Made by a program: the position numbers and the translations under genes. Shown here piece after piece: positions 16,576 to 30,212 of a DNA stretch of 64,000 nt (the stretch's first letter is position 1; each line of letters opens with the position of its first letter). Where the stretch lies: contig OY282377.1 in the NCBI GenBank assembly GCA_958295785.1, positions 5,272,896 through 5,336,895 of the forward strand, given 5' to 3'. Under the pieces are notes generated by a model. That model was not told the DNA's origin, did no database searches, and worked only from the letters and a program-made list of their open reading frames with translations. This stretch comes from an uncultured Latescibacterota bacterium. GTDB taxonomy: Bacteria > Latescibacterota > UBA2968.

Positions 16576-16992
16576 TCAATTCAGCAGTCGGATAAAGCCT
16601 GCTTGCTCAAAGTGGCGATCAGTTGTCAAGGCGTCGGTCAATCCACGCTGTTGCATCACGACAAAGCCCGCGCAATCCACGAGGCTCCATTTTTTATCCA
16701 ATCGGTTTCCGAATAACTGCCATGCCGCCTCGTCTAAGGACAGGTCAATGTGGACAACTTCGCCCCAAATCATTGAGCGGATGGTCTGAATATAATCCAG
16801 AATATCCGATCTTGATACACGTAAGGGGCTAGTAAAGAGGGCGACTAATTCACTCAAGACATAGTTTGTCGTGACGACACGCCCGTTTTGTTGTTGCCAC
16901 TGCGTCATCAACTCGACGGCCTTCGCATGATGAGGTTCAGTAGCAACAAAAAAGCTGGCTCATCCCGACGTATCTACAAATACCTCATTCAT
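16576..16992 (-). pseudogene. PIN-domain toxin-like gene with one in-frame TGA
   Basis: Read from the ATG at 16992, the frame is MNEVFVDTSG-stop-ASFFVATEPHHAKA and then an uninterrupted 111-codon PIN domain (TTNYVLSELVAL, WSLVDCAGFVVMQQ, TTDRHFEQAGF). The catalytic acids D7 (VDTS), E (LSE) and D (SLVD, TTD) are all kept. The TGA (16960-16962) replaces the Trp usual after VDTSG. The start overlaps the stop of the restriction-modification gene by 8 nt, so it was its operon partner. A single base (TGG to TGA) separates it from an intact VapC-like RNase. It could also be a base-call error or a read-through product. Confidence 0.8.
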
Positions 16993-19900
16993 TATCAACG
17001 CCTCGCATTTCTTTTAGCAATGCTTGTCCAATATACTCGTCGTGTCTTTCGCCAATGTCTGTGACATCGCAGGTCAACGTGCCTGCTAATGCCAGTAGGG
17101 GGTCGCGTTCGGGCCGATGTTGGACTTTCAGTTCCTCTTTACCCTCAATGGTGCGGATGATCTCCAAACTGTCGAAAAAGAAAAGGGGTTTTCGCACGGG
17201 ATGTTTTCTGTCAAATAGTCGCTCGAAGATGGCGCGTAGGGCAGACATTTTATCGCCGGTGATTTCCTCAATGGGAGACAAATGCTCGTCCAACAGCGGT
17301 TTGAAGAAGTACTTGCCAGCGCGATGCAGTTCATCGGTCAGGTAGATTTCATAAACCAGCCCGTCAATTATTTGCTCAAAATATTTGACCATCAGGTAGT
17401 CGCGGGCATGTGCTAAATTTTTGCCATCCGTAGAGGGCTGCTTCTTGAGGTAGATGATATAATCGACAATGATTGCGATAAGGTCGTTCTTATCGGCGGT
17501 GATCTTGGGAATGGGGATGGTTTCTAAATAGATCTTCTTCCAGCGCAATGTTCCCATACCCGATGTTGGCGCAATCTGATGTAGATACCAGCGAATCAAC
17601 TTCGCATTGAGCACGGCGCAAAGATATTTGATGTTCTTTCCTGTCGCCATAAATGCAGTGGCTTCGCAATATATTCCGCTGTCATCGTAAGCAAAACGCC
17701 CGTTTTCAACTAGTTCAATCCAAACCAGCTTTTCTTTTTTAAAATCTTCGTGGTAAGTGGTTGCATCCTGAATCTCAAACCATGAGTGCTGTGTCTTTTT
17801 GCGAGACCGGCCACCGCCGGGCAAATTTTTACCGCTTTGTTCCAATCGATCTTGACCGAAAGACAGTAGATGCTCCTTGACAGAGGGGTAGTCGTCAATA
17901 TCCAACTGTAATGCGGGAAATGTCGTAATCAACCACAGTCCCGCCCATTGCGCTTGGTATCGCTGAATGTCTCGCCCGCGTAGCACGGGCTTGATAATCT
18001 CGGCGGACTTCGGGTCTGCGGCGACCAACGCCTCTTTGATCTCATTATCGATGATGAAGGCGTCATTGAGTCCAGTCGTTACGCCGCGATAGATAGACAC
18101 ATCCCAGTCTTTCAGCGGTGTGCCGGCGGCCTCCATCTTATCCATAATGGACTGCTCAATGGCGGACAGCGCACTCCACGGCCTCTCCTCTCGCGGACGC
18201 AACTGCCCCCAAAGATTCTCCTCCGGCGGGAAGGCTTTATCGGGCAGGCGATCCATATCCACCGCCTTGCAGACCGCATCACTTTTGCCGCTACGCGCTA
18301 TCAGAATGTTGGTGTCAACGATGGCGTTTTCAAAAACATCCTTGCCCATTTCCAACAACTGCAACGGCGTGTGTTGCTCGGCGAAATAGCGGCGCGTGGA
18401 TCTGCCGTATTGCGCCTTTAGCCAACTGTTGGACGTGATATAAGCGATCAGGCCGCGCTGTGGCGTGAGCAGTTGACAGCCTTTTTCGTAGAACAGTTGG
18501 TAGATGTCGCCGGTGGAGGCGAAAGTGGTGAAACCAGCGTTTTGGTAACGGCGGCGCAATTCTCCTCTGTTCTTTTGCAACTGAATGTACGGCGGATTGC
18601 CGATCACCACATCGAACCCATCGGCGACGCCGAACATATACTCGGGATCGAACCAACTGGCTTTGGCGTTTTGGTCGTAGGGATCCCAATGCGTGATCTT
18701 ATTGGCATCATCTTCGGGAAGACCGGCGGCGTTGAGTTCTTCTGCCAATGCACGGCGCAACTTCGTGTCCTCATCTCTGCACGCGAGTTTTTTCGGGCGC
18801 GTGGTCGCGTGAAAATGTCGCTCGCGGTTTTCCGTCAGTTGCGTTTTCAGCCCCTCAATCTGCTGACGGAACAAGTCCAGTTGATTCGCAGCTTTGAGGG
18901 CTATCAGCGTATTCGCCGCTACAAAGCGCGTCTCCAAATTCGGCAGCGGCTTGATGCCGTAGTTGGACGCGGTCGCGTCCGGTTCTTGCTCGATGGCGAG
19001 GGAGATGAAAAAGCGCAGCTTGGCGATCTGCGTGGCTATCGTCTGAATATCCACGCCGAAAATGCTGTTTTGGATCAAGTACAACTTGCGCCCAAAGTCG
19101 CCCGAATACCGCTCGAAGGTGTCGCTGATCTCATTGAGTTCGGCTTTGCGTTCTCGTGGATTTTTCGTATCAAACGCCATGTCTGCCTTTGCGCGGGCGC
19201 GTTTTTTTTGCAAGGTTGCCCAGCGGTGGTTGTCGGGGTCGAGGCGGCGCAAGGCCATGGTCATCTTGTGCAACATGCCCATTGGAAACGCGCCGGAACC
19301 GACTGCGGGATCGAGCACCCTGATCTCGGAAATCGCCCGCACAATGCCCTCGGTTTCCTCTGCCTCAAACAGTTCATTGGCGTCGTCGAATGCGGCCTCA
19401 TAATCCAGTAAATAGCGCAACCGATCTTGCCACAACCCTGTATCGCCATCACTTGGCACGCACGCCTGAGCCAATGCCGCGACCAATGCCTCATCCACCA
19501 TATAATCCACCACAGCGCGCGGCGTGTAGTAAGAGCCTGTTTGCTTGCGGGCAGTGTCGCGGGTTTCGGGATTGTACGCGGCGAGAAGATTCTCGAACAC
19601 CTTGCCGAGAAGCTCCGGGTCGAGCGCGACTTCTTGCTCAACGGGCGTGTTTTCCTCCACTGTGAACTTGTAGCGATTGAACAGGGGGATCAGTCCATCG
19701 TCGTCAAAAAACAGGCGGTTGGGGATGGCATGGCCGCGGCGTTGGGCGGGGTTGTCGGTAAAGCAGTCGATGCGATAGCCGCCATCGCGGATCGCTTCCT
19801 CGCTGTCGAGGCAGTCGAACAGGCCGCCGTTGATGAAGGGCGTTTGCGCGAACAGAGCGAGCAACTGGTTGGGATCGGCGATCTCGTTCTCATACCGATA

Positions 19901-20908
19901 GCGGGAGAAATCGCGGTGCGTAACATTGCTCCCCTTGCTAAAACCGCGTCTGTTGATCTCCGTGTTCAGAGTGGCGAAAAACAGATTTTGCAACACGGCG
20001 CGATAATAGGAATCGCCTGTATCGCGGTCGTAATTCTTCAGCAATTTGGCGATTCGATTCTCAATGAACAGATTCTCGGCGATCAGATTTTTCTCTTTGA
20101 TGAACCAAACGAACATCAGCCGGGTGATCAGGCGGATGATATGTTCTTCAAGCGGTAGGGCTTTGGCTTGATCGGCGGGAAAGGTGGCTTCGCCAACAGC
20201 CCGCTCAAACCAACCGAACAGATCGCGGTAGAACCGTCGGTTCAGTGCCTCAGTGTCCAGCGCGTTGAGCCAAGCGGCCAGCAGGCCGTCAAAATTGTGC
20301 GGCTTGTCGTGGGTATTCATCCACTGCAAGCGTTGTGGCAACGACAAGTCGGACAAGATGTCCAAGTGGGCGCGATGCGGATTTTTGGGATCGATCTCCC
20401 GGATCAGCGACACATGGCCGAGCACATGGCGGTGGGGATCGCGCTTGTGTTCGCGGCGGTGAACAAAGGATAGGGTCAGGTGGTCGGTAGCGGTCTTGAA
20501 CAGCGCCACGGTCGGCGCGTTTATCCGCTTGTTGATCTCGCGGGTGAATTGGGCGTATTGCCCGCGCGTATAGATTTCGCCATCCAGTTCCAGGGCGACA
20601 AAGAGAAAACTTCGCGCATTGCCCGAGTCAAAGCCGTCGGTACTTCGCGCCGCTGCGATTTCAGTATCGGTCACCTGAAAGAGAATCCGCACGGATTGAA
20701 CGTTGTCGCGGAATGCCTGTTCGGTCTGCGTGTTCTCGTTTGGCGCGGGGAATTGATAGAGGAAGTCATTCGCGCTACCCGAGATGTCTAAGGTGCGTTC
20801 GCTCTCATAACCGAGGACGCCAAGCAGATGTTTGGCCGCCCCTGTGAACTCTGCGTTGGGCAACGCGGTCAAGGCATCCCCAATTCGCGTTTTGATGTTG
20901 TTGTTCAT
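16985..20908 (-). CDS. Type IIG restriction-modification enzyme (Eco57I/PglX-like)
   Basis: 1307 aa. N-terminal ~430 residues: a region with an Eco57I-like nuclease (RSFLFVALELDGEIYTRG, VALFKTATDHLTLSFVHRRE). Around 460-540 comes the methyltransferase: TGSYYTPRAVVDYMVDEAL, then motif I LDPAVGSGAFPMGML. NPPYIQLQKNRGELRR at ~772 is the catalytic motif IV of adenine-N6 methylases. A target-recognition region (residues ~900-1150) and a C-terminal helical part follow. One polypeptide should both methylate and cut. The PIN gene overlaps its end; a spacer of family-2 repeats lies upstream. Confidence 0.85.
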   Translation of the reverse strand: MNNNIKTRIGDALTALPNAEFTGAAKHLLGVLGYESERTLDISGSANDFLYQFPAPNENTQTEQAFRDNVQSVRILFQVTDTEIAAARSTDGFDSGNARSFLFVALELDGEIYTRGQYAQFTREINKRINAPTVALFKTATDHLTLSFVHRREHKRDPHRHVLGHVSLIREIDPKNPHRAHLDILSDLSLPQRLQWMNTHDKPHNFDGLLAAWLNALDTEALNRRFYRDLFGWFERAVGEATFPADQAKALPLEEHIIRLITRLMFVWFIKEKNLIAENLFIENRIAKLLKNYDRDTGDSYYRAVLQNLFFATLNTEINRRGFSKGSNVTHRDFSRYRYENEIADPNQLLALFAQTPFINGGLFDCLDSEEAIRDGGYRIDCFTDNPAQRRGHAIPNRLFFDDDGLIPLFNRYKFTVEENTPVEQEVALDPELLGKVFENLLAAYNPETRDTARKQTGSYYTPRAVVDYMVDEALVAALAQACVPSDGDTGLWQDRLRYLLDYEAAFDDANELFEAEETEGIVRAISEIRVLDPAVGSGAFPMGMLHKMTMALRRLDPDNHRWATLQKKRARAKADMAFDTKNPRERKAELNEISDTFERYSGDFGRKLYLIQNSIFGVDIQTIATQIAKLRFFISLAIEQEPDATASNYGIKPLPNLETRFVAANTLIALKAANQLDLFRQQIEGLKTQLTENRERHFHATTRPKKLACRDEDTKLRRALAEELNAAGLPEDDANKITHWDPYDQNAKASWFDPEYMFGVADGFDVVIGNPPYIQLQKNRGELRRRYQNAGFTTFASTGDIYQLFYEKGCQLLTPQRGLIAYITSNSWLKAQYGRSTRRYFAEQHTPLQLLEMGKDVFENAIVDTNILIARSGKSDAVCKAVDMDRLPDKAFPPEENLWGQLRPREERPWSALSAIEQSIMDKMEAAGTPLKDWDVSIYRGVTTGLNDAFIIDNEIKEALVAADPKSAEIIKPVLRGRDIQRYQAQWAGLWLITTFPALQLDIDDYPSVKEHLLSFGQDRLEQSGKNLPGGGRSRKKTQHSWFEIQDATTYHEDFKKEKLVWIELVENGRFAYDDSGIYCEATAFMATGKNIKYLCAVLNAKLIRWYLHQIAPTSGMGTLRWKKIYLETIPIPKITADKNDLIAIIVDYIIYLKKQPSTDGKNLAHARDYLMVKYFEQIIDGLVYEIYLTDELHRAGKYFFKPLLDEHLSPIEEITGDKMSALRAIFERLFDRKHPVRKPLFFFDSLEIIRTIEGKEELKVQHRPERDPLLALAGTLTCDVTDIGERHDEYIGQALLKEMRGVDNE

Positions 20909-20921
20909 GTATTGTCCATTT

Positions 20922-21005
20922 GTCTGGATCGCGGATTAAACGGATTACGCGGATTGCGCGGATTACCCCACCCCTTCCACCTCCGCTATGTCCTTTGTAC
21001 CACCT
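20922..21005. repeat. Dispersed repeat, family 2 (copy b)
   Basis: Matches 16403-16492 over the GATCGCGGATTAAACGGATT block and the CCACCTCCGCTATGTCCTTT tail. It lies immediately upstream of the start of the type IIG gene. Confidence 0.8.
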
Positions 21006-21053: not shown

Positions 21054-21110
21054 TACATCCTTCCCATCTGCTATGCCTTTAGCCTATCTTTGGTCAAGCA
21101 TAGCGTTCAA
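21054..21110. repeat. Dispersed repeat, family 3 (copy a)
   Basis: ACATCCTTCCCATCTGCTAT followed by TAGCCTATCTTTGGTCAAGC and ATAGCGTTCAA. A second copy with few mismatches is at 26166-26222; the two copies bracket the 21.2-26.1 kb block. Confidence 0.75.
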
Positions 21111-21220
21111 GGGTTTTCGTCGTTCTTCCCATCATCGGGCGAGCACGGGGGCATCGCCCCTACATTTGTTTTCATTCGCGTTATGTGTCTGGCGATTCTC
21201 AGCAGATCACGCGGGTTCAA
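21107..21220 (-). pseudogene. Truncated HEPN-like gene head
   Basis: A TTG at 21220, overlapping the end of the upstream gene, opens LNPRDLLRIARHITRMKTN. This looks like the first helix of the small HEPN proteins (..PRDLLxxAR..) that usually follow genes like 21207-21524. After 19 codons the frame runs into the family-1 repeat (21137-21163) and stops. I infer that most of the HEPN gene was lost when the repeat arrived or by a deletion there. Confidence 0.4.
21137..21163. repeat. Dispersed 27-bp repeat, family 1 (copy b)
   Basis: Identical in sense to the copy at 5343: GGGCGAGCACGGGGGCATCG plus CCCCTAC. It truncates the HEPN-like frame. Confidence 0.8.
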
Positions 21221-21524
21221 AGTACCTTCCTTTTTGGAGTGCCTCCCATTCGGACTTCTCCACAAATGACTTGCTTGGGAACTCGTCTATTCCCAATTTT
21301 ATCAATTTTGGAAAAATCCGACCGAGCAGGCCAGCGGTCCATTCTGGATCCAGATGTTTCTGGTCCCCGTCGAATACGATGGTAATGTGCAGGTATTCTT
21401 CGCCATCGCGATCTATTTCGGGTTCTACGATAATTGGGTCAAACACAAACTCGTCTCCGAAGCGTTGCACCAGCATCTCGCTGACGATATTCACAACGGC
21501 ATCTGTCTTTGTTTGGGCTGTCAT
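21207..21524 (-). CDS. Small conserved-looking protein, partner of a lost HEPN gene
   Basis: 105 aa, not a named family to me. Acidic and compact: RFGDEFVFDPIIVEPEIDRD, EYLHITIVFDGDQKHLDPEW and GLLGRIFPKLIKLGI. I recall such proteins paired with a downstream HEPN-domain gene in toxin-antitoxin-like arrangements; here the pair is broken (21107-21220). A good ribosome site (AAGGAAC) precedes the ATG. Confidence 0.6.
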   Translation of the reverse strand: MTAQTKTDAVVNIVSEMLVQRFGDEFVFDPIIVEPEIDRDGEEYLHITIVFDGDQKHLDPEWTAGLLGRIFPKLIKLGIDEFPSKSFVEKSEWEALQKGRYFEPA

Positions 21525-21613
21525 CTAAAGTTCCTTTCAAGAAACACCGCCTCGGCAACGGTCAGGCACAGTGTATTAAATTATCCCCTTGCCTGGATCG
21601 CGGATTGCACGGA

Positions 21614-21820
21614 TTACCCCCACCGCCACACACCCGCTTCATCCTTATCATCAGCCAAGTTGATTTGCAAATACCCTTTCCACTGCCCGTCGCGTGTATG
21701 CGACCAAAGGCTGTTCCAATATGTAGCCGAGCTAATGAGGTAATCCGTATCATCAGTGTCTAATGATACGAAATATGCGTCGATACGATACTGGTTTTTA
21801 TTTTTTTCTTGCGTGAACAA
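21614..21820 (-). CDS. Hypothetical 68-aa protein ending in repeat DNA
   Basis: MFTQEKNKNQYRIDAYFVSL, then a Trp-rich end (WNSLWSHTRDGQWKGYLQI). Not recognised. The last codons and the stop lie in a family-2 repeat, so the original C-terminus may be lost. It could be a gene remnant behind the giant gene; coding potential is plausible but unproven. Confidence 0.3.
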   Translation of the reverse strand: MFTQEKNKNQYRIDAYFVSLDTDDTDYLISSATYWNSLWSHTRDGQWKGYLQINLADDKDEAGVWRWG

Positions 21821-21880: not shown

Positions 21881-24800
21881 TCACTCTTCGAATGGGCTTC
21901 TCTGTGCATCACGTTCTGCATCTCGCTCGTAGCCCCTTGCAAACGCACGCATTGCAGTTGCAAATCTCGAATAACCTGCTGTCTCAAGGGCCTCTGCCTT
22001 TTCGCGATTTCGTTGCGCCAATTCTCGCTCTTCTTTTCCGGCAGTGAAGGCGTGGACACCCCGCTGATTGAAAAGCTCAATTGTAAAGCCAGAGCGCATT
22101 TTTCCCGCATCTCTTGCGTTCAATGCCGACGCGACTGCTTGATGTATCCATAGGCCGTTGGGATCTTTTGGTGCATATGTCAATACGTGGCCGATCCGCC
22201 CCTGAGCAATTTCACTGTGGCCGGTCTCTTTCGTAATTCGCTTTGCCTCCTTCAACCAATTCGTGAATTTTTCTTCATCAAAGGCGTCATCGGAAAGTTT
22301 GCCGGGACACCTTCTCCATTTGTTTAGGAGCCTGTAGGCATTCATGGCCTGCGACTTTCTTTCTTCGCTCGGTTCGCCGTCGCTTTCAGCCTCGTTCTTT
22401 GAACGAAAGGCGAGAGCGACGATCTCAGCGAAGAAGGCGGGGGCCGAGGCAAGACGTTTTTCGAGTGTAACAGGTGATCCGGATGAGAAACGATCCAGCA
22501 GCAGTGGTAGGAAAGACCATTCAATCTCAAAAAGAGCATTTGGGTCAACAATGGGTGAATCCTGAAGGCACTTTATCACCTCGATAGTCTGATATTGATC
22601 TAGCTGAACGTCCACATCGGGCATCTCCAGCACCGCGAGAAGTGCTCGAATTGCAAGGTCTTTCTTAAATTTTTTCTGATCGTTGACCGTGTGAGAAACA
22701 CAAAGGATAGCTTCGGGAGCCCGTCCATATTTGAGCAATTTCTCAATCGCTAAAGTCAAGTCTCGATTTGGCCCAAACGGATTTACGGCGACCTTTTGCC
22801 AATAGAGCCTCTCATTCTCTCTGCCGAGGTGTTTTTCTACTCGACTCCAGACGCCCTCCTCAAATGGAAGCAAGACTAGGAACGCGCTTTTCTGTATGTT
22901 ATTCCAAGCCTTTCCAAAAACTTGATCAACCCAGGTCCAACTCAATTTCTGGATTCGTTCTGGAACGAATTCAGATACAACCCGTTTCTCAGTTTCGTCT
23001 TCAGTATTAAGCAGGGACGGAAGAATTTCCGCCTCAATATCTTCATTTTCGATACTACCCAAAGCACATCCAACTTTGCCAGGTAAAGCAACACTCTGAG
23101 CGAAACGCAGTACAGCAGACACGCCTCCTGTGTCAAGAATCTTTTGCACAGCATCCTGTCGAGCTTTATCAAGGCGTTTTTGCCGTTCCTCGTAATTTTT
23201 CTCATCAGGAAAAAGATCAAAATCTTGACCACTAAAGAGATAATGATATTTCATCTCTGGGGTTTCGGGTGCCAAAGTATTTGCCACAATCTCAATTTTT
23301 GAAATTCTATCTTCCGGCATTGCCCATTCAGCATCCGCAAATTTTCGGTGTCGGCGCACTAGACCATCTAACCTTTCCCAGATTAAAACGCGATCAGCCT
23401 CGGGCAAAGCTACGACCTCTTTTGAGGCTAAGTGTTTTAGAAGATTATCGACTGCGTGATTGGGTAAAACGGGCATACAGTTGATCAACTCACCCAAGTT
23501 TTCAGTGCTCGTCTTTGCGAGTTCTATTGCCATCTCGGTGTAAATCGTTATTTGTTTCCCATACTCTGACCGTAGGATCCCATCCTTCCAATCTTTCGGA
23601 ATGTAGTTCCGCCAAGTCGGTTGATGACATCCAATAGTGAAACCGTGATCGTGTGGCAATAGACCTATAATTAACTGCCAACCTACTTCTGGTTGCTCTT
23701 GGAGCACGGTTTTGACAGCTATCTTCCGCTTCTCGAGTGAGGCACTCGTTTGTATATGCCAAGGCAAAAAAATATCGACGAGGGAATTTAACGGTCGATT
23801 TGCCCAATTCCCTCCGGGATCAATTGAAGCAAGGTCGGATAGAATCACGGCTACCCGCGAAAGGAAATCTGGATGCCATGCAAGGGTTTCCAAGGCCCAT
23901 AATAGGCCACTCATGTAGTTCTTCCCTCCTATGCCTCCACTGCTTTCTTGGGCAAAAACTTCATGAAATGGAGATTGGATCAAATCCTCCAATGCTGACT
24001 CGACAGCGTCGAGAAACTCGTTGGGAGCCGCTTCAGCGAGAAGTGGCAACAGCGAATCCAAACTCGCCCAGCGGTCCCAGTCTGCATTATTCAAGAGTTG
24101 TCTGACGGTACGGGTTGCCACGGTTTTGACTTTTCCAAACGAACACTCGGAAAGTGCTTCTAAGCGACTTCCAACAAGGGCGAGTGTTTCTGCCATGCCT
24201 TCGCGGAGCAGGCGGGAATGTTTCAGTTGTTTGCCGCGAATGCTTGCCAAGAATCTTTTCTCTTTGGGCAAGTCAAATTTTGGATCCCTTTCCCCTAGAA
24301 CTACAACGGCTGTATCTTCGAGCCGATCAAGGTCTTCATCCGTTATTCTGTTACCCAACGCGCTCCATGCTTCCCTCCGCACGACGAATCGCCATTTTTC
24401 ATCGCGTTGAATTAGGGGAGAGTCCGAGCGAAGCGCGTCAGATCTCAGGGTCTCGATCCACTCCCCATATTCTTTTCCCAACAAGTTCTCCAAAGCTTTC
24501 TGATCCGCCGCGTTCTTTCCATCCCACTTTCCGGCGAGCCCCGCTTGTGCAATGAGCCTTGCATTGTTCCATGTCGGATAGGGCGGCACAGTCCCAGGTC
24601 CACGTAAATTTCTGAGTAGAGCGGACAGTCGATCACCTCCAATGCCCGCTAGTTCTCGCGAACGGACATCCGAGTAATCTGCCTCTTTCAGAACCTTTTC
24701 TATTTGGGATTGAGATGGACTTTGTAGTCTGATGATCTCAGAATTTCCCCCTGCGAATGCACCACAAAGCGGAACGATCACCGCGTGTCCTTTTCGCGTG

Positions 24801-25819
24801 GCAATTGTTAGGAGCTCAGATCGCTCCTCCGACTCCAAATTGAGCCGGGGATTAGCGACCAAAATGTGTGATTTCCGCACCTCTACAACCGCACGCCAAG
24901 CGTCTTCTTCAGCAATATAGAGGCATCGGTTGGCGTAATCCCGGGCAATTTCCTCATCAAGAGTCTCAATGTAAGCTGCAACAAAATCGGCGACATCTTG
25001 CTCGCCTTCTGCAAACAGTAGCAACTGCAACTTTTGCGAGGTGCCCTCAAACAATGCCTGAAGCGCATTGCAGGCATGGCTACGCCCTTCCATAAATAGC
25101 TTTGGTGGAATGGGGGGATCGCCAGGTCTAGTCAGAGAGACGATATTTTCCCAATGCTCCCTCGGTGTCGAAATCCCGCCCAAGCTTCTCGACAAGCCTA
25201 TCTCTCTTGCCATCCACTGGCCCACAGCGGGAAATTCCCGCAACCAATCGGCGAGCCTGACGCCGTCGATAATGCGGATATCTTTCCAACCTTTATCTTT
25301 TCTGCGCTCCAGCCACTTTGTTTGTTCCGGCTCTCCCCATCTAGCGAAACGAGGAGTCACAAAAACAAATGAACCTTGGGCCCGATCATCGGCGGAGAGT
25401 TGTTTCGTTCTCTTATGGAAGTCTTTGGTAGCCTTGGTTTGCGAATCGTTCCCCGTGCCGAGCTCCCAGTACGATCTGCCATCCGGGACGAACTCGAGAA
25501 ACGCCGATTCAGCCTCAACGATTCCATCCCAATCGCTTTGATTTACAGCGTCTCCGTAGGGAATGCGGCACACAGAGGCATTAGAGATAGACTGCTTTAC
25601 AAGCAAGTAGATCAGCTCTGGTATTACAGTTTGGCTGTTTATGCTATCTGCATATTGTTCGAAATCAGCGGCGCGGACGATGTGGGTATTGTTTGGAAAA
25701 ACCCGCGCTCTGGCGGCCTCTCGTCTTTTTCGACGCGCCTCTGGTCCACGATAAATTTCAGGGGTATTCTCATTCATATAGGTTTGGTAATCAAATTCAA
25801 TCTCTTTAGTCGTATCCAT
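21881..25819 (-). CDS. Giant nuclease-STAND-like protein with a BrnA-like head
   Basis: 1312 aa from the ATG at 25819 (GGAGAA 9-10 bases upstream). Residues 1-45 (IEFDYQTYMNEN, IYRGPEARRKRREAARARV) look like an antitoxin head and follow brnT with a 14-nt overlap. From ~47 (HIVRAADFEQYADSINSQTV) begins a domain of large defence-type proteins: QSDWDGIVEAE, VPDGRSYWELGTG, FVFVTPRFARWG and IRIIDGVRLADWL. D96/D98, E119 and K129 could form a PD-(D/E)XK-like site. Residues ~225-420 sit where a STAND NTPase is expected, but no GxxGxGK(S/T) is present (LQLLLFAEGEQD at the loop position). The remaining ~850 residues are helical-repeat-like. I infer an antiviral or toxin protein; no partner is proven. 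Confidence 0.6.
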   Translation of the reverse strand: MDTTKEIEFDYQTYMNENTPEIYRGPEARRKRREAARARVFPNNTHIVRAADFEQYADSINSQTVIPELIYLLVKQSISNASVCRIPYGDAVNQSDWDGIVEAESAFLEFVPDGRSYWELGTGNDSQTKATKDFHKRTKQLSADDRAQGSFVFVTPRFARWGEPEQTKWLERRKDKGWKDIRIIDGVRLADWLREFPAVGQWMAREIGLSRSLGGISTPREHWENIVSLTRPGDPPIPPKLFMEGRSHACNALQALFEGTSQKLQLLLFAEGEQDVADFVAAYIETLDEEIARDYANRCLYIAEEDAWRAVVEVRKSHILVANPRLNLESEERSELLTIATRKGHAVIVPLCGAFAGGNSEIIRLQSPSQSQIEKVLKEADYSDVRSRELAGIGGDRLSALLRNLRGPGTVPPYPTWNNARLIAQAGLAGKWDGKNAADQKALENLLGKEYGEWIETLRSDALRSDSPLIQRDEKWRFVVRREAWSALGNRITDEDLDRLEDTAVVVLGERDPKFDLPKEKRFLASIRGKQLKHSRLLREGMAETLALVGSRLEALSECSFGKVKTVATRTVRQLLNNADWDRWASLDSLLPLLAEAAPNEFLDAVESALEDLIQSPFHEVFAQESSGGIGGKNYMSGLLWALETLAWHPDFLSRVAVILSDLASIDPGGNWANRPLNSLVDIFLPWHIQTSASLEKRKIAVKTVLQEQPEVGWQLIIGLLPHDHGFTIGCHQPTWRNYIPKDWKDGILRSEYGKQITIYTEMAIELAKTSTENLGELINCMPVLPNHAVDNLLKHLASKEVVALPEADRVLIWERLDGLVRRHRKFADAEWAMPEDRISKIEIVANTLAPETPEMKYHYLFSGQDFDLFPDEKNYEERQKRLDKARQDAVQKILDTGGVSAVLRFAQSVALPGKVGCALGSIENEDIEAEILPSLLNTEDETEKRVVSEFVPERIQKLSWTWVDQVFGKAWNNIQKSAFLVLLPFEEGVWSRVEKHLGRENERLYWQKVAVNPFGPNRDLTLAIEKLLKYGRAPEAILCVSHTVNDQKKFKKDLAIRALLAVLEMPDVDVQLDQYQTIEVIKCLQDSPIVDPNALFEIEWSFLPLLLDRFSSGSPVTLEKRLASAPAFFAEIVALAFRSKNEAESDGEPSEERKSQAMNAYRLLNKWRRCPGKLSDDAFDEEKFTNWLKEAKRITKETGHSEIAQGRIGHVLTYAPKDPNGLWIHQAVASALNARDAGKMRSGFTIELFNQRGVHAFTAGKEERELAQRNREKAEALETAGYSRFATAMRAFARGYERDAERDAQRSPFEE

Positions 25820-26075
25820 TGAGATATTCTCCTTTCGCGTCAAATGCGGTGATAAGACGATTTAGCGGCATATCTTCTTCGGAGCAGATCACAGCCAACA
25901 CCCGACCATTAACTGTTGCCCTTACCCGCATCCATCGATCTTCATGGCCTTGTGGATCTAAGGTTTCGTATCCTTTTGGATCATCAAATGCGGAAACCAC
26001 CTCGTAAAACTGGACTTTATGCTTTCTTTGGACTTCTCGATATTTGTCTTCGTCCCATATAAATCCAACATCCAT
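25806..26075 (-). CDS. brnT: BrnT-family toxin (ribonuclease)
   Basis: 89 aa. Core features of BrnT: FIWDEDKYREVQRKHKVQFY, VVSAFDDP, EDRWMRVRATVNGRVLAVI and a C-terminal LITAFDAKGEYLNGYD, where most members have RIISAR. Toxin of a type II module that cuts mRNA; the antitoxin BrnA normally follows. Here the following gene is the giant protein, overlapping by 14 nt, and no separate brnA is present. GGAG lies 8 bases before the ATG. Confidence 0.8.
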   Translation of the reverse strand: MDVGFIWDEDKYREVQRKHKVQFYEVVSAFDDPKGYETLDPQGHEDRWMRVRATVNGRVLAVICSEEDMPLNRLITAFDAKGEYLNGYD

Positions 26076-26165: not shown

Positions 26166-26222
26166 CACATCCTTCCCATCTGCTACGCCCTTAGCCTATC
26201 TTTGGTCAGGCATAGCGTTCAA
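26166..26222. repeat. Dispersed repeat, family 3 (copy b)
   Basis: CACATCCTTCCCATCTGCTA then TTAGCCTATCTTTGGTCAGG and CATAGCGTTCAA; same orientation as 21054-21110. Confidence 0.75.
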
Positions 26223-26289
26223 TCATTTTCGCGCCGTGAACGTGTCTGGGCAACGACACGTTGAAAACCGCTCCGCGCTTTTCGTCGTT

Positions 26290-28637: not shown

Positions 28638-30212
28638 ATGCGATTTTTTAACACCGCTGGCCCTATCAAGCCCGACATGCACTACTGCATCCCACCGCTG
28701 CAACGCTTGGACCTGGACGAGGTGCTCACACTCGTGCAAAACGGGAAGTACTTCGTCCTGCACGCGCCCCGGCAGACGGGCAAGACTTCTGCGTTGCTGG
28801 CACTGCGCGACCTGCTCAATACCGAGGGCACCTATCGTTGCGTGTACATCAATGTGGAACGCGGACAGACCGCACGCGAAGATGTGGAACGGGCGATGCG
28901 CGCCATCCTGGGCGAACTGGCCTCTCGGGCGCGTTCTGCGCTGGGCGACGAGTTTTTAGACGAGATTTGGTTCGACATCTTATCGAAGTACGGCCCAGAT
29001 GGCGCGCTCGGCGAGGCGTTGACCCGCTGGGCCGAGGCCGATCCCAAGCCCGTGGTGTTGCTCATCGACGAAATAGACGCGCTGATCGGGGACTCCCTGC
29101 TGGCGGTGTTGCGGCAGTTGCGCGGGGGCTACGATCTGCGTCCGACAAGTTTTCCGCAAAGTGCGGTTTTATGCGGGGTGCGCGATGTGCATGATTACCG
29201 CATCCAATCCACCGCGGAGAATGCGATCATTGCCGGCGGCAGTGCGTTCAACATCAAAGCGAGATCGTTGCGCTTGGGCAACTTCTCGCGGGATGAGGTG
29301 CTCGCCCTCCTCAACCAGCACACCGAGGAAACGGGACAAGCGTTCACCGCAGATGTGCAAGAACTGATCTGGATGCAGACCCAAGGGCAACCGTGGCTGG
29401 TCAACGCGCTGGCCTACACAGCCTGCTTCGAGAACAAAACCGGGCGAGATCGTTCCCTGTCCGTGGACGACGAGGCCATCCGAGAAGCCCAAGAACAACT
29501 CATCCTGCGTCGAGAAACGCACTTGGATCAGCTAACCGACAAATTGCAGGAAGAGCGCGTGAGGCGCGTGGTTGAGCCACTGCTCAGTGGCGGCGGAGAC
29601 CGCGACTTCACGGACCGCGATTTGGCGTATGTGCGCGACCTCGGCCTCATTGCCCAAGATCGCCCCTTGCGTATCGCCAACCCGATCTACGCCGAGGTTG
29701 TGCCGCGTGAATTGACATGGGTCGTGCAAGAGGAGTTCAATCGGGAAACGGCATGGTACATCACTGCCAACGGCGGCTTGGATGTAGCCAAACTGCTGAC
29801 CGAGTTCCAGACCTTCTTCCGCGAGCACTCAGAGCATTGGGTGAAGCGGTTCGCGTATCGAGAGGCCGGCCCCCAGTTGCTATTGCAGGCGTTTTTGCAG
29901 CGCATCGTGAACAGCGGTGGGCGCATCGAACGGGAGTACGGCTTGGGCAAAATGCGAACCGATTTGCTCATCGTCTGGCCGCAGGGCGAGCGGACGCGCA
30001 AATTTGTGATCGAGTGCAAAGTGCTTCGCAAGAGCTTGGAACAGACTATCGCCGAAGGGTTGAATCAGACCACTGAGTACATGGATCGTTGCGCGGCAGA
30101 GGCGGGTCATCTGGTGATCTTTGACCGCCGCACAGACAGGCGTTGGGACGACAAGGTGTTCCACACCCGCCGGGCCTTGAACAGCGGTGAAATCGACATC
30201 TGGGGCATGTGA
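28638..30212 (+). CDS. AAA ATPase fused to a PD-(D/E)XK nuclease-like domain
   Basis: 524 aa. Walker A APRQTGKTSALLAL (residues ~43-56), Walker B VVLLIDEIDAL (~145), and arginine-rich sensor stretches, as in AAA_35-type archaeal/bacterial ATPases. The C-terminus (TDLLIVWPQGERTRK, then FVIECKVLRKSLEQTI) gives D..ECK of a PD-(D/E)XK fold. These proteins are widespread and multi-copy in FCB/PVC-type genomes; the role is unknown, possibly NTP-driven DNA processing. It overlaps the far 5' frame of bioB only trivially. Confidence 0.75.
   Translation: MRFFNTAGPIKPDMHYCIPPLQRLDLDEVLTLVQNGKYFVLHAPRQTGKTSALLALRDLLNTEGTYRCVYINVERGQTAREDVERAMRAILGELASRARSALGDEFLDEIWFDILSKYGPDGALGEALTRWAEADPKPVVLLIDEIDALIGDSLLAVLRQLRGGYDLRPTSFPQSAVLCGVRDVHDYRIQSTAENAIIAGGSAFNIKARSLRLGNFSRDEVLALLNQHTEETGQAFTADVQELIWMQTQGQPWLVNALAYTACFENKTGRDRSLSVDDEAIREAQEQLILRRETHLDQLTDKLQEERVRRVVEPLLSGGGDRDFTDRDLAYVRDLGLIAQDRPLRIANPIYAEVVPRELTWVVQEEFNRETAWYITANGGLDVAKLLTEFQTFFREHSEHWVKRFAYREAGPQLLLQAFLQRIVNSGGRIEREYGLGKMRTDLLIVWPQGERTRKFVIECKVLRKSLEQTIAEGLNQTTEYMDRCAAEAGHLVIFDRRTDRRWDDKVFHTRRALNSGEIDIWGM

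What the first reader, a model, noticed from the sequence alone, without database searches (positions are those of the whole stretch)
21881..26075. brnT followed by a 1312-aa nuclease/STAND-like protein with an antitoxin-like head
Sequence: brnT overlaps by 14 nt a gene whose first ~45 residues (DYQTYMNEN, YRGPEARRKRREAARARV) read like the linker before a BrnA ribbon-helix-helix domain. The next residues (HIVRAADFEQYADS, SDWDGIVEAE, SYWELGTG) start a different, large protein whose likely NTPase site lacks a Walker A. Inference: an antitoxin gene head fused onto a defence ATPase-nuclease, possibly placing the toxin and effector under one control. I know of no description of such a fusion.
Basis: partly seen in the sequence, partly recalled or inferred. 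Interest (0 to 1): 0.85.

Follow-up and report, generated by a model that had tools for sequence, protein, structure and literature searches.

The report
Toxin-linked head fused to defence nuclease
A small toxin gene is followed by a large anti-virus-type protein that has swapped its own start for a 42-residue "head"; relatives carry the same head on other, mostly defensive proteins, so it looks like a movable tag that may tie these proteins to the toxin.

Summary
brnT (25806-26075, minus) overlaps by 14 nt a 1312-aa gene made of two unrelated parts. Residues 43-1312 are an Avs-like protein: PD-(D/E)XK nuclease, NTPase fold without Walker A, helical-repeat C-terminus. Nine homologues from several phyla begin with their own Met at or near that point (mostly MDHTHIV...), and none has brnT nearby. 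Residues 1-42 are a separate, mobile head. In 64 genomes of the phylum it also starts TPR proteins behind the same divergent brnT clade (all four clade members carry it), a restriction endonuclease, a type IIG restriction enzyme (tandem heads) and a 60-aa stand-alone ORF. It is joined at or near native starts and is under coding selection (dN/dS mostly 0.13-0.6). DNA shared with other brnT-head loci starts at the brnT ATG and ends at the head's end. A 65-nt direct repeat, found nowhere else in the genome, brackets the unit. The "BrnA-headed" reading is only partly supported: no detectable BrnA homology, conserved heads without brnT in another genus, and a BrnT clade that lost a probable toxicity residue. 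Best guess: the head is a BrnT-binding, antitoxin-type segment. Main rival: a mobile leader or tag unrelated to toxin control.

The parts
25806..26075 (-). brnT-like gene, 89 aa, of a divergent clade; keeps the K-H pair, lost the Arg of the 'SAR' motif
   Evidence: PF04365 E 2.2e-12; alignment with canonical BrnTs; only 4 members in 64 genomes, all followed by the head
25694..25819 (-). mobile head, residues 1-42 of the fused gene; starts inside the 3' end of brnT
   Evidence: profile hits in other genomes; DNA similarity confined to the head; dN/dS mostly 0.13-0.6; predicted with low confidence (mean pLDDT 35-50 over residues 1-40), i.e. probably disordered alone
25682..25699 (-). fusion junction, codons 41-46 (TTT CCA AAC AAT ACC CAC); native homologues read ATG GAC/GAT CAT/CAC ACC/ACT/ACA CAC/CAT, so the native start codon is replaced by CCA
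   Evidence: codon comparison with L052, L002, L020 and L021
21881..25693 (-). body, residues 43-1312: Avs-like defence protein
   Evidence: homologues 43-69% identical from about residue 43 in several phyla; Foldseek best match of N-terminal half Avs4, E 6e-6; distant relatives L010 and L022 hit PADLOC PD-Lambda-4_A
25175..25681 (-). PD-(D/E)XK-type nuclease domain (about residues 47-215) with D98, E119 and K129
   Evidence: D98 and K129 invariant, E119 nearly so, in 12 sequences including 24-28% relatives; alpha/beta elements, pLDDT about 90
24560..25174 (-). NTPase-like domain without Walker A (about residues 216-420)
   Evidence: no GxxxxGK[ST] in the homologues aligned; clamp-loader and Apaf-1-type matches besides Avs4
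21881..24559 (-). helical-repeat C-terminus (about residues 421-1312), presumed sensor; the same module follows other N-termini elsewhere
   Evidence: all-helical model of residues 641-1312, mean pLDDT 85; HEAT/ARM-type weak matches; behind SLFN_AlbA_2 in L007-L009
26167..26231 (.). 65-nt direct repeat, copy 2, about 92 nt upstream of brnT
   Evidence: 91% identical to copy 1; only two copies in the whole genome
21055..21119 (.). 65-nt direct repeat, copy 1, beyond the 3' side of the unit and about 147 nt upstream of the type IIG gene
21207..21524 (-). 105-aa ORF inside the repeat-bracketed unit, no known family

Best explanation
Anatomy (shown, about 0.9): a brnT-plus-head segment was captured in front of an Avs-like defence gene and joined exactly at its start codon. 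No start codon near the native start survives, so the body is most likely translated only from the head's ATG, which sits inside the end of brnT; the two proteins are translationally coupled. Mechanism (inferred, about 0.45): the head is the toxin-contacting, antitoxin-type segment of this divergent BrnT clade, disordered alone and folding on BrnT. By wearing it, the defence protein takes the antitoxin's place: it holds and neutralises BrnT, and releases or repositions it when phage triggers the sensor or destroys the protein. Loss of the defence protein would also unleash the toxin. In other lineages the same head was grafted onto other cargo.
For: Homologues of residues 43-1312 start there with their own Met and lack brnT. 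All four members of this brnT clade in 64 genomes are followed at once by a head-bearing gene, three with TPR bodies and one with the Avs-like body. DNA homology between the window and those loci starts at the brnT ATG and ends at the head's end, so brnT and head move together. The head is under coding selection (Fisher p 0.003 for one pair) and is predicted with low confidence on its own, as expected for a segment that folds on a partner. Toxin-then-partner order with overlap and a Shine-Dalgarno is that of a brnTA operon (PMC11980606 lists BrnT as T/A). An N-terminal antitoxin segment doing the neutralising has precedent: RelI residues 2-24 block RelS, a BrnT-like toxin (PMC13284704). In G008 brnT has lost its first half to repeats while the head-TPR gene stays intact, the order of loss expected for toxin and antitoxin. 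No start codon near the native start survives.
Against: No detectable BrnA homology. Heads in genus g13 have no brnT beside them and still look constrained. The BrnT clade lost the Arg of the conserved 'SAR' position (taken here, by inference, as R72 of B. abortus BrnT) and the following ER motif, so toxicity is uncertain. In G001 the head lacks nine residues next to an intact brnT. Nothing here tests binding or toxicity.
Confidence: 0.45

Rival explanations
1. The head is a mobile 5' module (start region plus N-terminal tag) that travels between defence genes by recombination and gives expression, coupling, targeting or stability. It does not neutralise BrnT; brnT is one neighbour among several.
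For: The same head sits in front of a restriction endonuclease, a type IIG enzyme and as a 60-aa ORF in g13 genomes without brnT. In each testable case headless orthologues begin at the native Met: MDHTHIV, MTGQLFTHYF, MTYETQ in a 95% identical gene. 14-codon truncated copies follow type IIG genes in g13 genomes. No BrnA homology.
Against: It does not explain why all four members of this brnT clade carry the head, nor why brnT and head share one homologous DNA block. Selection acts on the amino-acid sequence of the head.
Confidence: 0.35
2. A non-functional accident: recombination in a defence island fused the reading frames, the protein tolerates the extension, and BrnT is degenerate and inert.
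For: The BrnT clade lost conserved C-terminal residues; only one genome has this exact fusion; direct repeats point to rearrangement.
Against: Three or more separate head fusions at or near native starts, and coding selection on the head. The 3.9-kb frame and the nuclease residues are intact.
Confidence: 0.17
3. No fusion: the 42 residues are the ancestral N-terminus of the body family, lost elsewhere.
For: None found.
Against: Homologues from several phyla down to 43% identity start at MDHTHIV or nearby, while the head is on unrelated proteins.
Confidence: 0.02

Closest known systems
BrnT/BrnA toxin-antitoxin modules, including fused brnTA genes (PMC11980606)
   Same: brnT first, partner gene overlapping and downstream; PF04365 toxin family; K-H pair kept
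   Different: Known partners carry RHH or HTH DNA-binding domains. Here the partner slot holds a ~1270-residue Avs-like protein (or a TPR protein) behind a head with no detectable BrnA homology.
BrnT-like genes upstream of CoCoNuT type IV restriction systems (PMC11090510)
   Same: BrnT-like toxin gene directly upstream of a defence gene in the same direction, with some toxicity residues missing
   Different: The passage read describes juxtaposition only, with no shared head on the defence protein; a different defence family.
Avs4 and related STAND nuclease-NTPase-sensor proteins
   Same: N-terminal nuclease, P-loop NTPase fold, helical sensor; best Foldseek match 8dgf, E 6e-6
   Different: No Walker A in the family; no match of the window protein to PADLOC models; extra 42-residue head; TM-score low.
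PD-Lambda-4 component A (PADLOC model)
   Same: Distant body relatives L010 (E 2.6e-7) and L022 (E 0.004) match it
   Different: The window protein itself does not match.
Panacea (PanA) hyperpromiscuous antitoxin domain (PMC8832971, PMC10440598)
   Same: Modular swapping between toxin-partner segments and other domains
   Different: Panacea is one antitoxin domain paired with many toxins; here one short head is prefixed to many cargo proteins, several without a toxin gene.
RelS-RelI of M. tuberculosis (PMC13284704)
   Same: BrnT-like toxin whose antitoxin needs its N-terminal residues 2-24 to neutralise
   Different: RelI is a small HTH antitoxin; similarity to the head was not tested.

Membership tests
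BrnT toxin (PF04365) | Match to the family model above its cut-off | tested here: met
   47.6 bits against 34.5
BrnT toxin (PF04365) | Residues implicated in toxicity (K16, H17, R72 of B. abortus BrnT, per PMC13284704) | tested here: inconclusive
   K-H pair conserved; the Arg of the canonical 'SAR' motif is Phe in this clade. R72 is equated with that Arg by inference.
BrnT toxin (PF04365) | Ribonuclease activity and toxicity | not testable with these tools
   needs expression assays
BrnA antitoxin | C-terminal RHH (or HTH) DNA-binding domain | tested here: not met
   no such family anywhere in the 1312 aa
BrnA antitoxin | Sequence homology of the N-terminal segment to BrnA | tested here: not met
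   hhalign probability 8%; no BrnA hit in Pfam or NCBIfam; only a loose E[FY]D[FY]..RG resemblance
BrnA antitoxin | Encoded directly behind and overlapping brnT | tested here: met
   14-nt overlap; same arrangement in G001 and G005, and behind a truncated brnT in G008
PD-(D/E)XK nucleases | D, E/Q and K of the active site in an alpha/beta core | tested here: met
   D98, E119, K129; alpha/beta elements in the model. Assignment by motif and model; no family-model hit.
Avs / STAND | Nuclease plus P-loop NTPase plus helical sensor architecture | tested here: met
   Foldseek Avs4 E 6e-6 on the N-terminal half; helical C-terminus. TM-scores are low (0.26).
Avs / STAND | Walker A motif GxxxxGK[ST] | tested here: not met
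   absent from the homologues aligned
PD-Lambda-4 A | Match to the PADLOC model | tested here: not met
   no hit for the window protein; distant relatives do hit

The most novel reading that the evidence does not exclude
A ~42-residue antitoxin-type segment acts as a transferable docking tag. Prefixed to unrelated defence proteins (Avs-like nuclease, restriction enzymes), it lets each of them hold a BrnT-type toxin, so that damage to or triggering of the defence protein frees the toxin: a plug-in dead-man's switch shared by different immune systems.
Probability: 0.3. Interest if true: 0.85.

Novelty: new variant of a known kind. Interest (0 to 1): 0.64.

Why it matters
Toxin-antitoxin genes and large immune proteins crowd the same islands, but direct physical links between them are few. 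Here a single short head connects a toxin operon, an Avs-like protein and restriction enzymes, and it has been joined at or near native start codons several times. If the head binds BrnT, it shows how a defence protein can become an antitoxin in one step and gives a testable case of toxins guarding immune systems. If it does not, it is still a recurrent, selected N-terminal module on defence proteins with no known family.

Tried and rejected
BrnA homology of the head: Pfam, NCBIfam, PHROG, PDB and profile-profile comparison negative or marginal. The weak PHROG (E 0.009), BAG (E 0.026) and SmpB-tail (E 0.23) hits are single-member or marginal and were not used. Head as the native N-terminus of the body: rejected. 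Assembly artefact: unlikely; single-contig genome, open 3.9-kb frame, same head elsewhere. Head in viral contigs: none found. Weak profile hits at G000:C1:1648068, 1655271, 1880348 and 2447404 (E 0.03-0.05) were taken as chance. Promoter scan of the repeat regions found no sigma-70-like sites. Literature on head-like fusions: none found.
Full report
OBSERVATION. The window holds, on the minus strand, a brnT-like gene (25806-26075, 89 aa) and a 1312-aa gene (21881-25819) overlapping it by 14 nt. BrnT passes its Pfam cut-off. The long protein matches no Pfam, NCBIfam or PADLOC family. The second ATG has an AAAGGAG site inside brnT.

THE TWO PARTS. Whole-genome and GTDB scans found homologues of the long protein: 69% identity in G017, 62-63% in G042, G002 and G005, and 43-62% in records labelled Gammaproteobacteria, Planctomycetota and Desulfobacteraceae. 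The full-length close ones align from about residue 43. They begin with their own Met, mostly MDHTHIV..., against ...ARVFPNNTHIV... in the window. At codon level ATG GAC CAT ACC CAC became CCA AAC AAT ACC CAC, while the preceding codons continue the head seen elsewhere. So the junction is at the native start codon and no extra residues were added. No brnT of this clade lies near any headless homologue.

THE HEAD. In the 64 available genomes of the phylum, residues 1-42 were found only in genera g1 and g13. Records of g13 genomes are titled Latescibacterota, Latescibacteria or Gemmatimonadetes/Gemmatimonadota. In g1 the head starts TPR proteins in G001, G005 and G008, each directly behind a member of the same brnT clade; the clade has four members in all. 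In g13 it starts a restriction endonuclease next to a DNA methylase (L052, L054), a type IIG enzyme with two heads in tandem (L057), and a 60-aa ORF behind an AAA-DUF3226 pair (L053). A remnant sits in L058. Fourteen-codon truncated heads follow type IIG genes (L131, L132, L054). Headless orthologues exist for the type IIG enzyme (L025, L026) and for the endonuclease (L154, 95% identical, and L156-L158). The head was therefore prefixed to native starts at least three times, in the endonuclease with a short linker. DNA similarity between g1 and g13 heads is confined to the head. Pairwise dN/dS is 0.13-0.6 except for one very close pair; for one g13 pair p = 0.003. The head is therefore most likely translated and selected.

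ORIGIN OF THE UNIT. DNA similarity between the window and the G005 and G001 loci starts exactly at the brnT ATG and stops at the head's end. The site where G005 and G008 carry brnT-head-TPR, before an ATPase gene that I read as ARC/Mpa-like, is empty in the window's genome. A 65-nt direct repeat (91%) brackets brnT, the fusion and a 105-aa ORF, and has only these two copies in 5.66 Mb. G+C is 44% in brnT-head and 49% in the body, against 55% for the window. All this fits assembly by recombination; the agent is unknown.

THE BODY. Residues 47-215 keep D98, E119 and K129 and model as an alpha/beta domain. Residues 216-420 look like a P-loop NTPase without Walker A; the loss is shared with the homologues aligned and is not caused by the fusion. 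Foldseek's best match for residues 1-660 is Avs4 (E 6e-6, low TM-score). Residues 641-1312 are all-helical (pLDDT 85) with only weak HEAT/ARM-type matches. The C-terminal part also occurs behind SLFN_AlbA_2 and behind another N-terminus, the effector-swap pattern of immune proteins. Distant relatives match PD-Lambda-4_A.

HOW IT MIGHT WORK. Shown: gene overlap that implies translational coupling, loss of the native start, co-inheritance of brnT and head, coding selection on the head, low-confidence (probably disordered) head in the model. Inferred: the head binds BrnT. Support comes from the four-of-four linkage, the brnTA-like gene order, the RelI precedent for N-terminal neutralisation (PMC13284704), and G008, where brnT lost its first half, including the K-H pair, while the head gene stayed intact. 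Against: no BrnA homology, constrained heads without brnT in g13, the missing 'SAR' Arg and ER of this BrnT clade, and a 9-residue deletion in the G001 head. I therefore give the toxin-control reading 0.45 and the mobile-leader/tag reading 0.35.

KNOWN CONTEXT. BrnT-BrnA gene fusions are described, with RHH or HTH partners (PMC11980606). BrnT-like genes sit upstream of CoCoNuT restriction systems and there too lack some toxicity residues (PMC11090510). Panacea shows modular antitoxins (PMC8832971, PMC10440598). I found no description of a shared head across toxin partners and defence proteins, but the library holds only open-licence papers.

LIMITS. The GTDB scan used the exact peptide EFDYQTYM for the head, so divergent heads outside this phylum would be missed. 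No metagenome scan was available. Heads are short (42 codons), so dN/dS values are rough. Genome lineages come from kinship labels and record titles, not from a tree made here.

Noticed in passing
window 21055-21119 and 26167-26231: A 65-nt direct repeat with only two copies in the genome; one lies about 92 nt upstream of brnT, the other about 147 nt upstream of the type IIG restriction gene, so it could be a shared leader or the footprint of an insertion.
   Followed up: partly
L057 3498-7724 (G044): Two heads in tandem, read through in one frame, in front of an Eco57I-type restriction enzyme.
   Followed up: partly
L131 2315-2353, L132, L054 3374-3445: Truncated heads of about 14 codons with a shared upstream leader (ttgacagRgttYgggcga...), between type IIG genes and a small conserved ORF (MDKDYVKEV...).
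   Followed up: partly
L055 3600-3960 (G008): The 5' half of brnT, including the K-H pair, is replaced by tandem repeats containing a GTCATCGCGG...GCCGCGATCCAG motif; the head-TPR gene behind it is intact.
   Followed up: yes
L007, L008, L009, L023: The body's C-terminal ~880 residues occur behind a Schlafen AlbA_2 domain (L007-L009) or a different N-terminus (L023): presumed immune proteins with swapped effectors and no family name.
   Followed up: partly
window 16985-20908: Type IIG-like restriction-modification gene (Eco57I, TaqI_C) directly downstream of the unit; a similar enzyme is beside the body homologue in G017.
   Followed up: partly
window 28638-30212: 524-aa plus-strand ORF that reads like an ATPase (APRQTGKTS) with a C-terminal nuclease-like FVIECK stretch.
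   Followed up: no
window 20911-20995 and 21580-21646: Further short direct repeats (CTGGATCGCGGATT...CGGATTAC) in the two gaps around the 105-aa ORF.
   Followed up: no
L056 3300-3560 and 4330-4600: The brnT-head-TPR pair in G005 is flanked on both sides by palindromic GTCATCGCGG...GCCGCGATCCAG repeats, a possible means of movement; the site is empty in the window's genome.
   Followed up: partly
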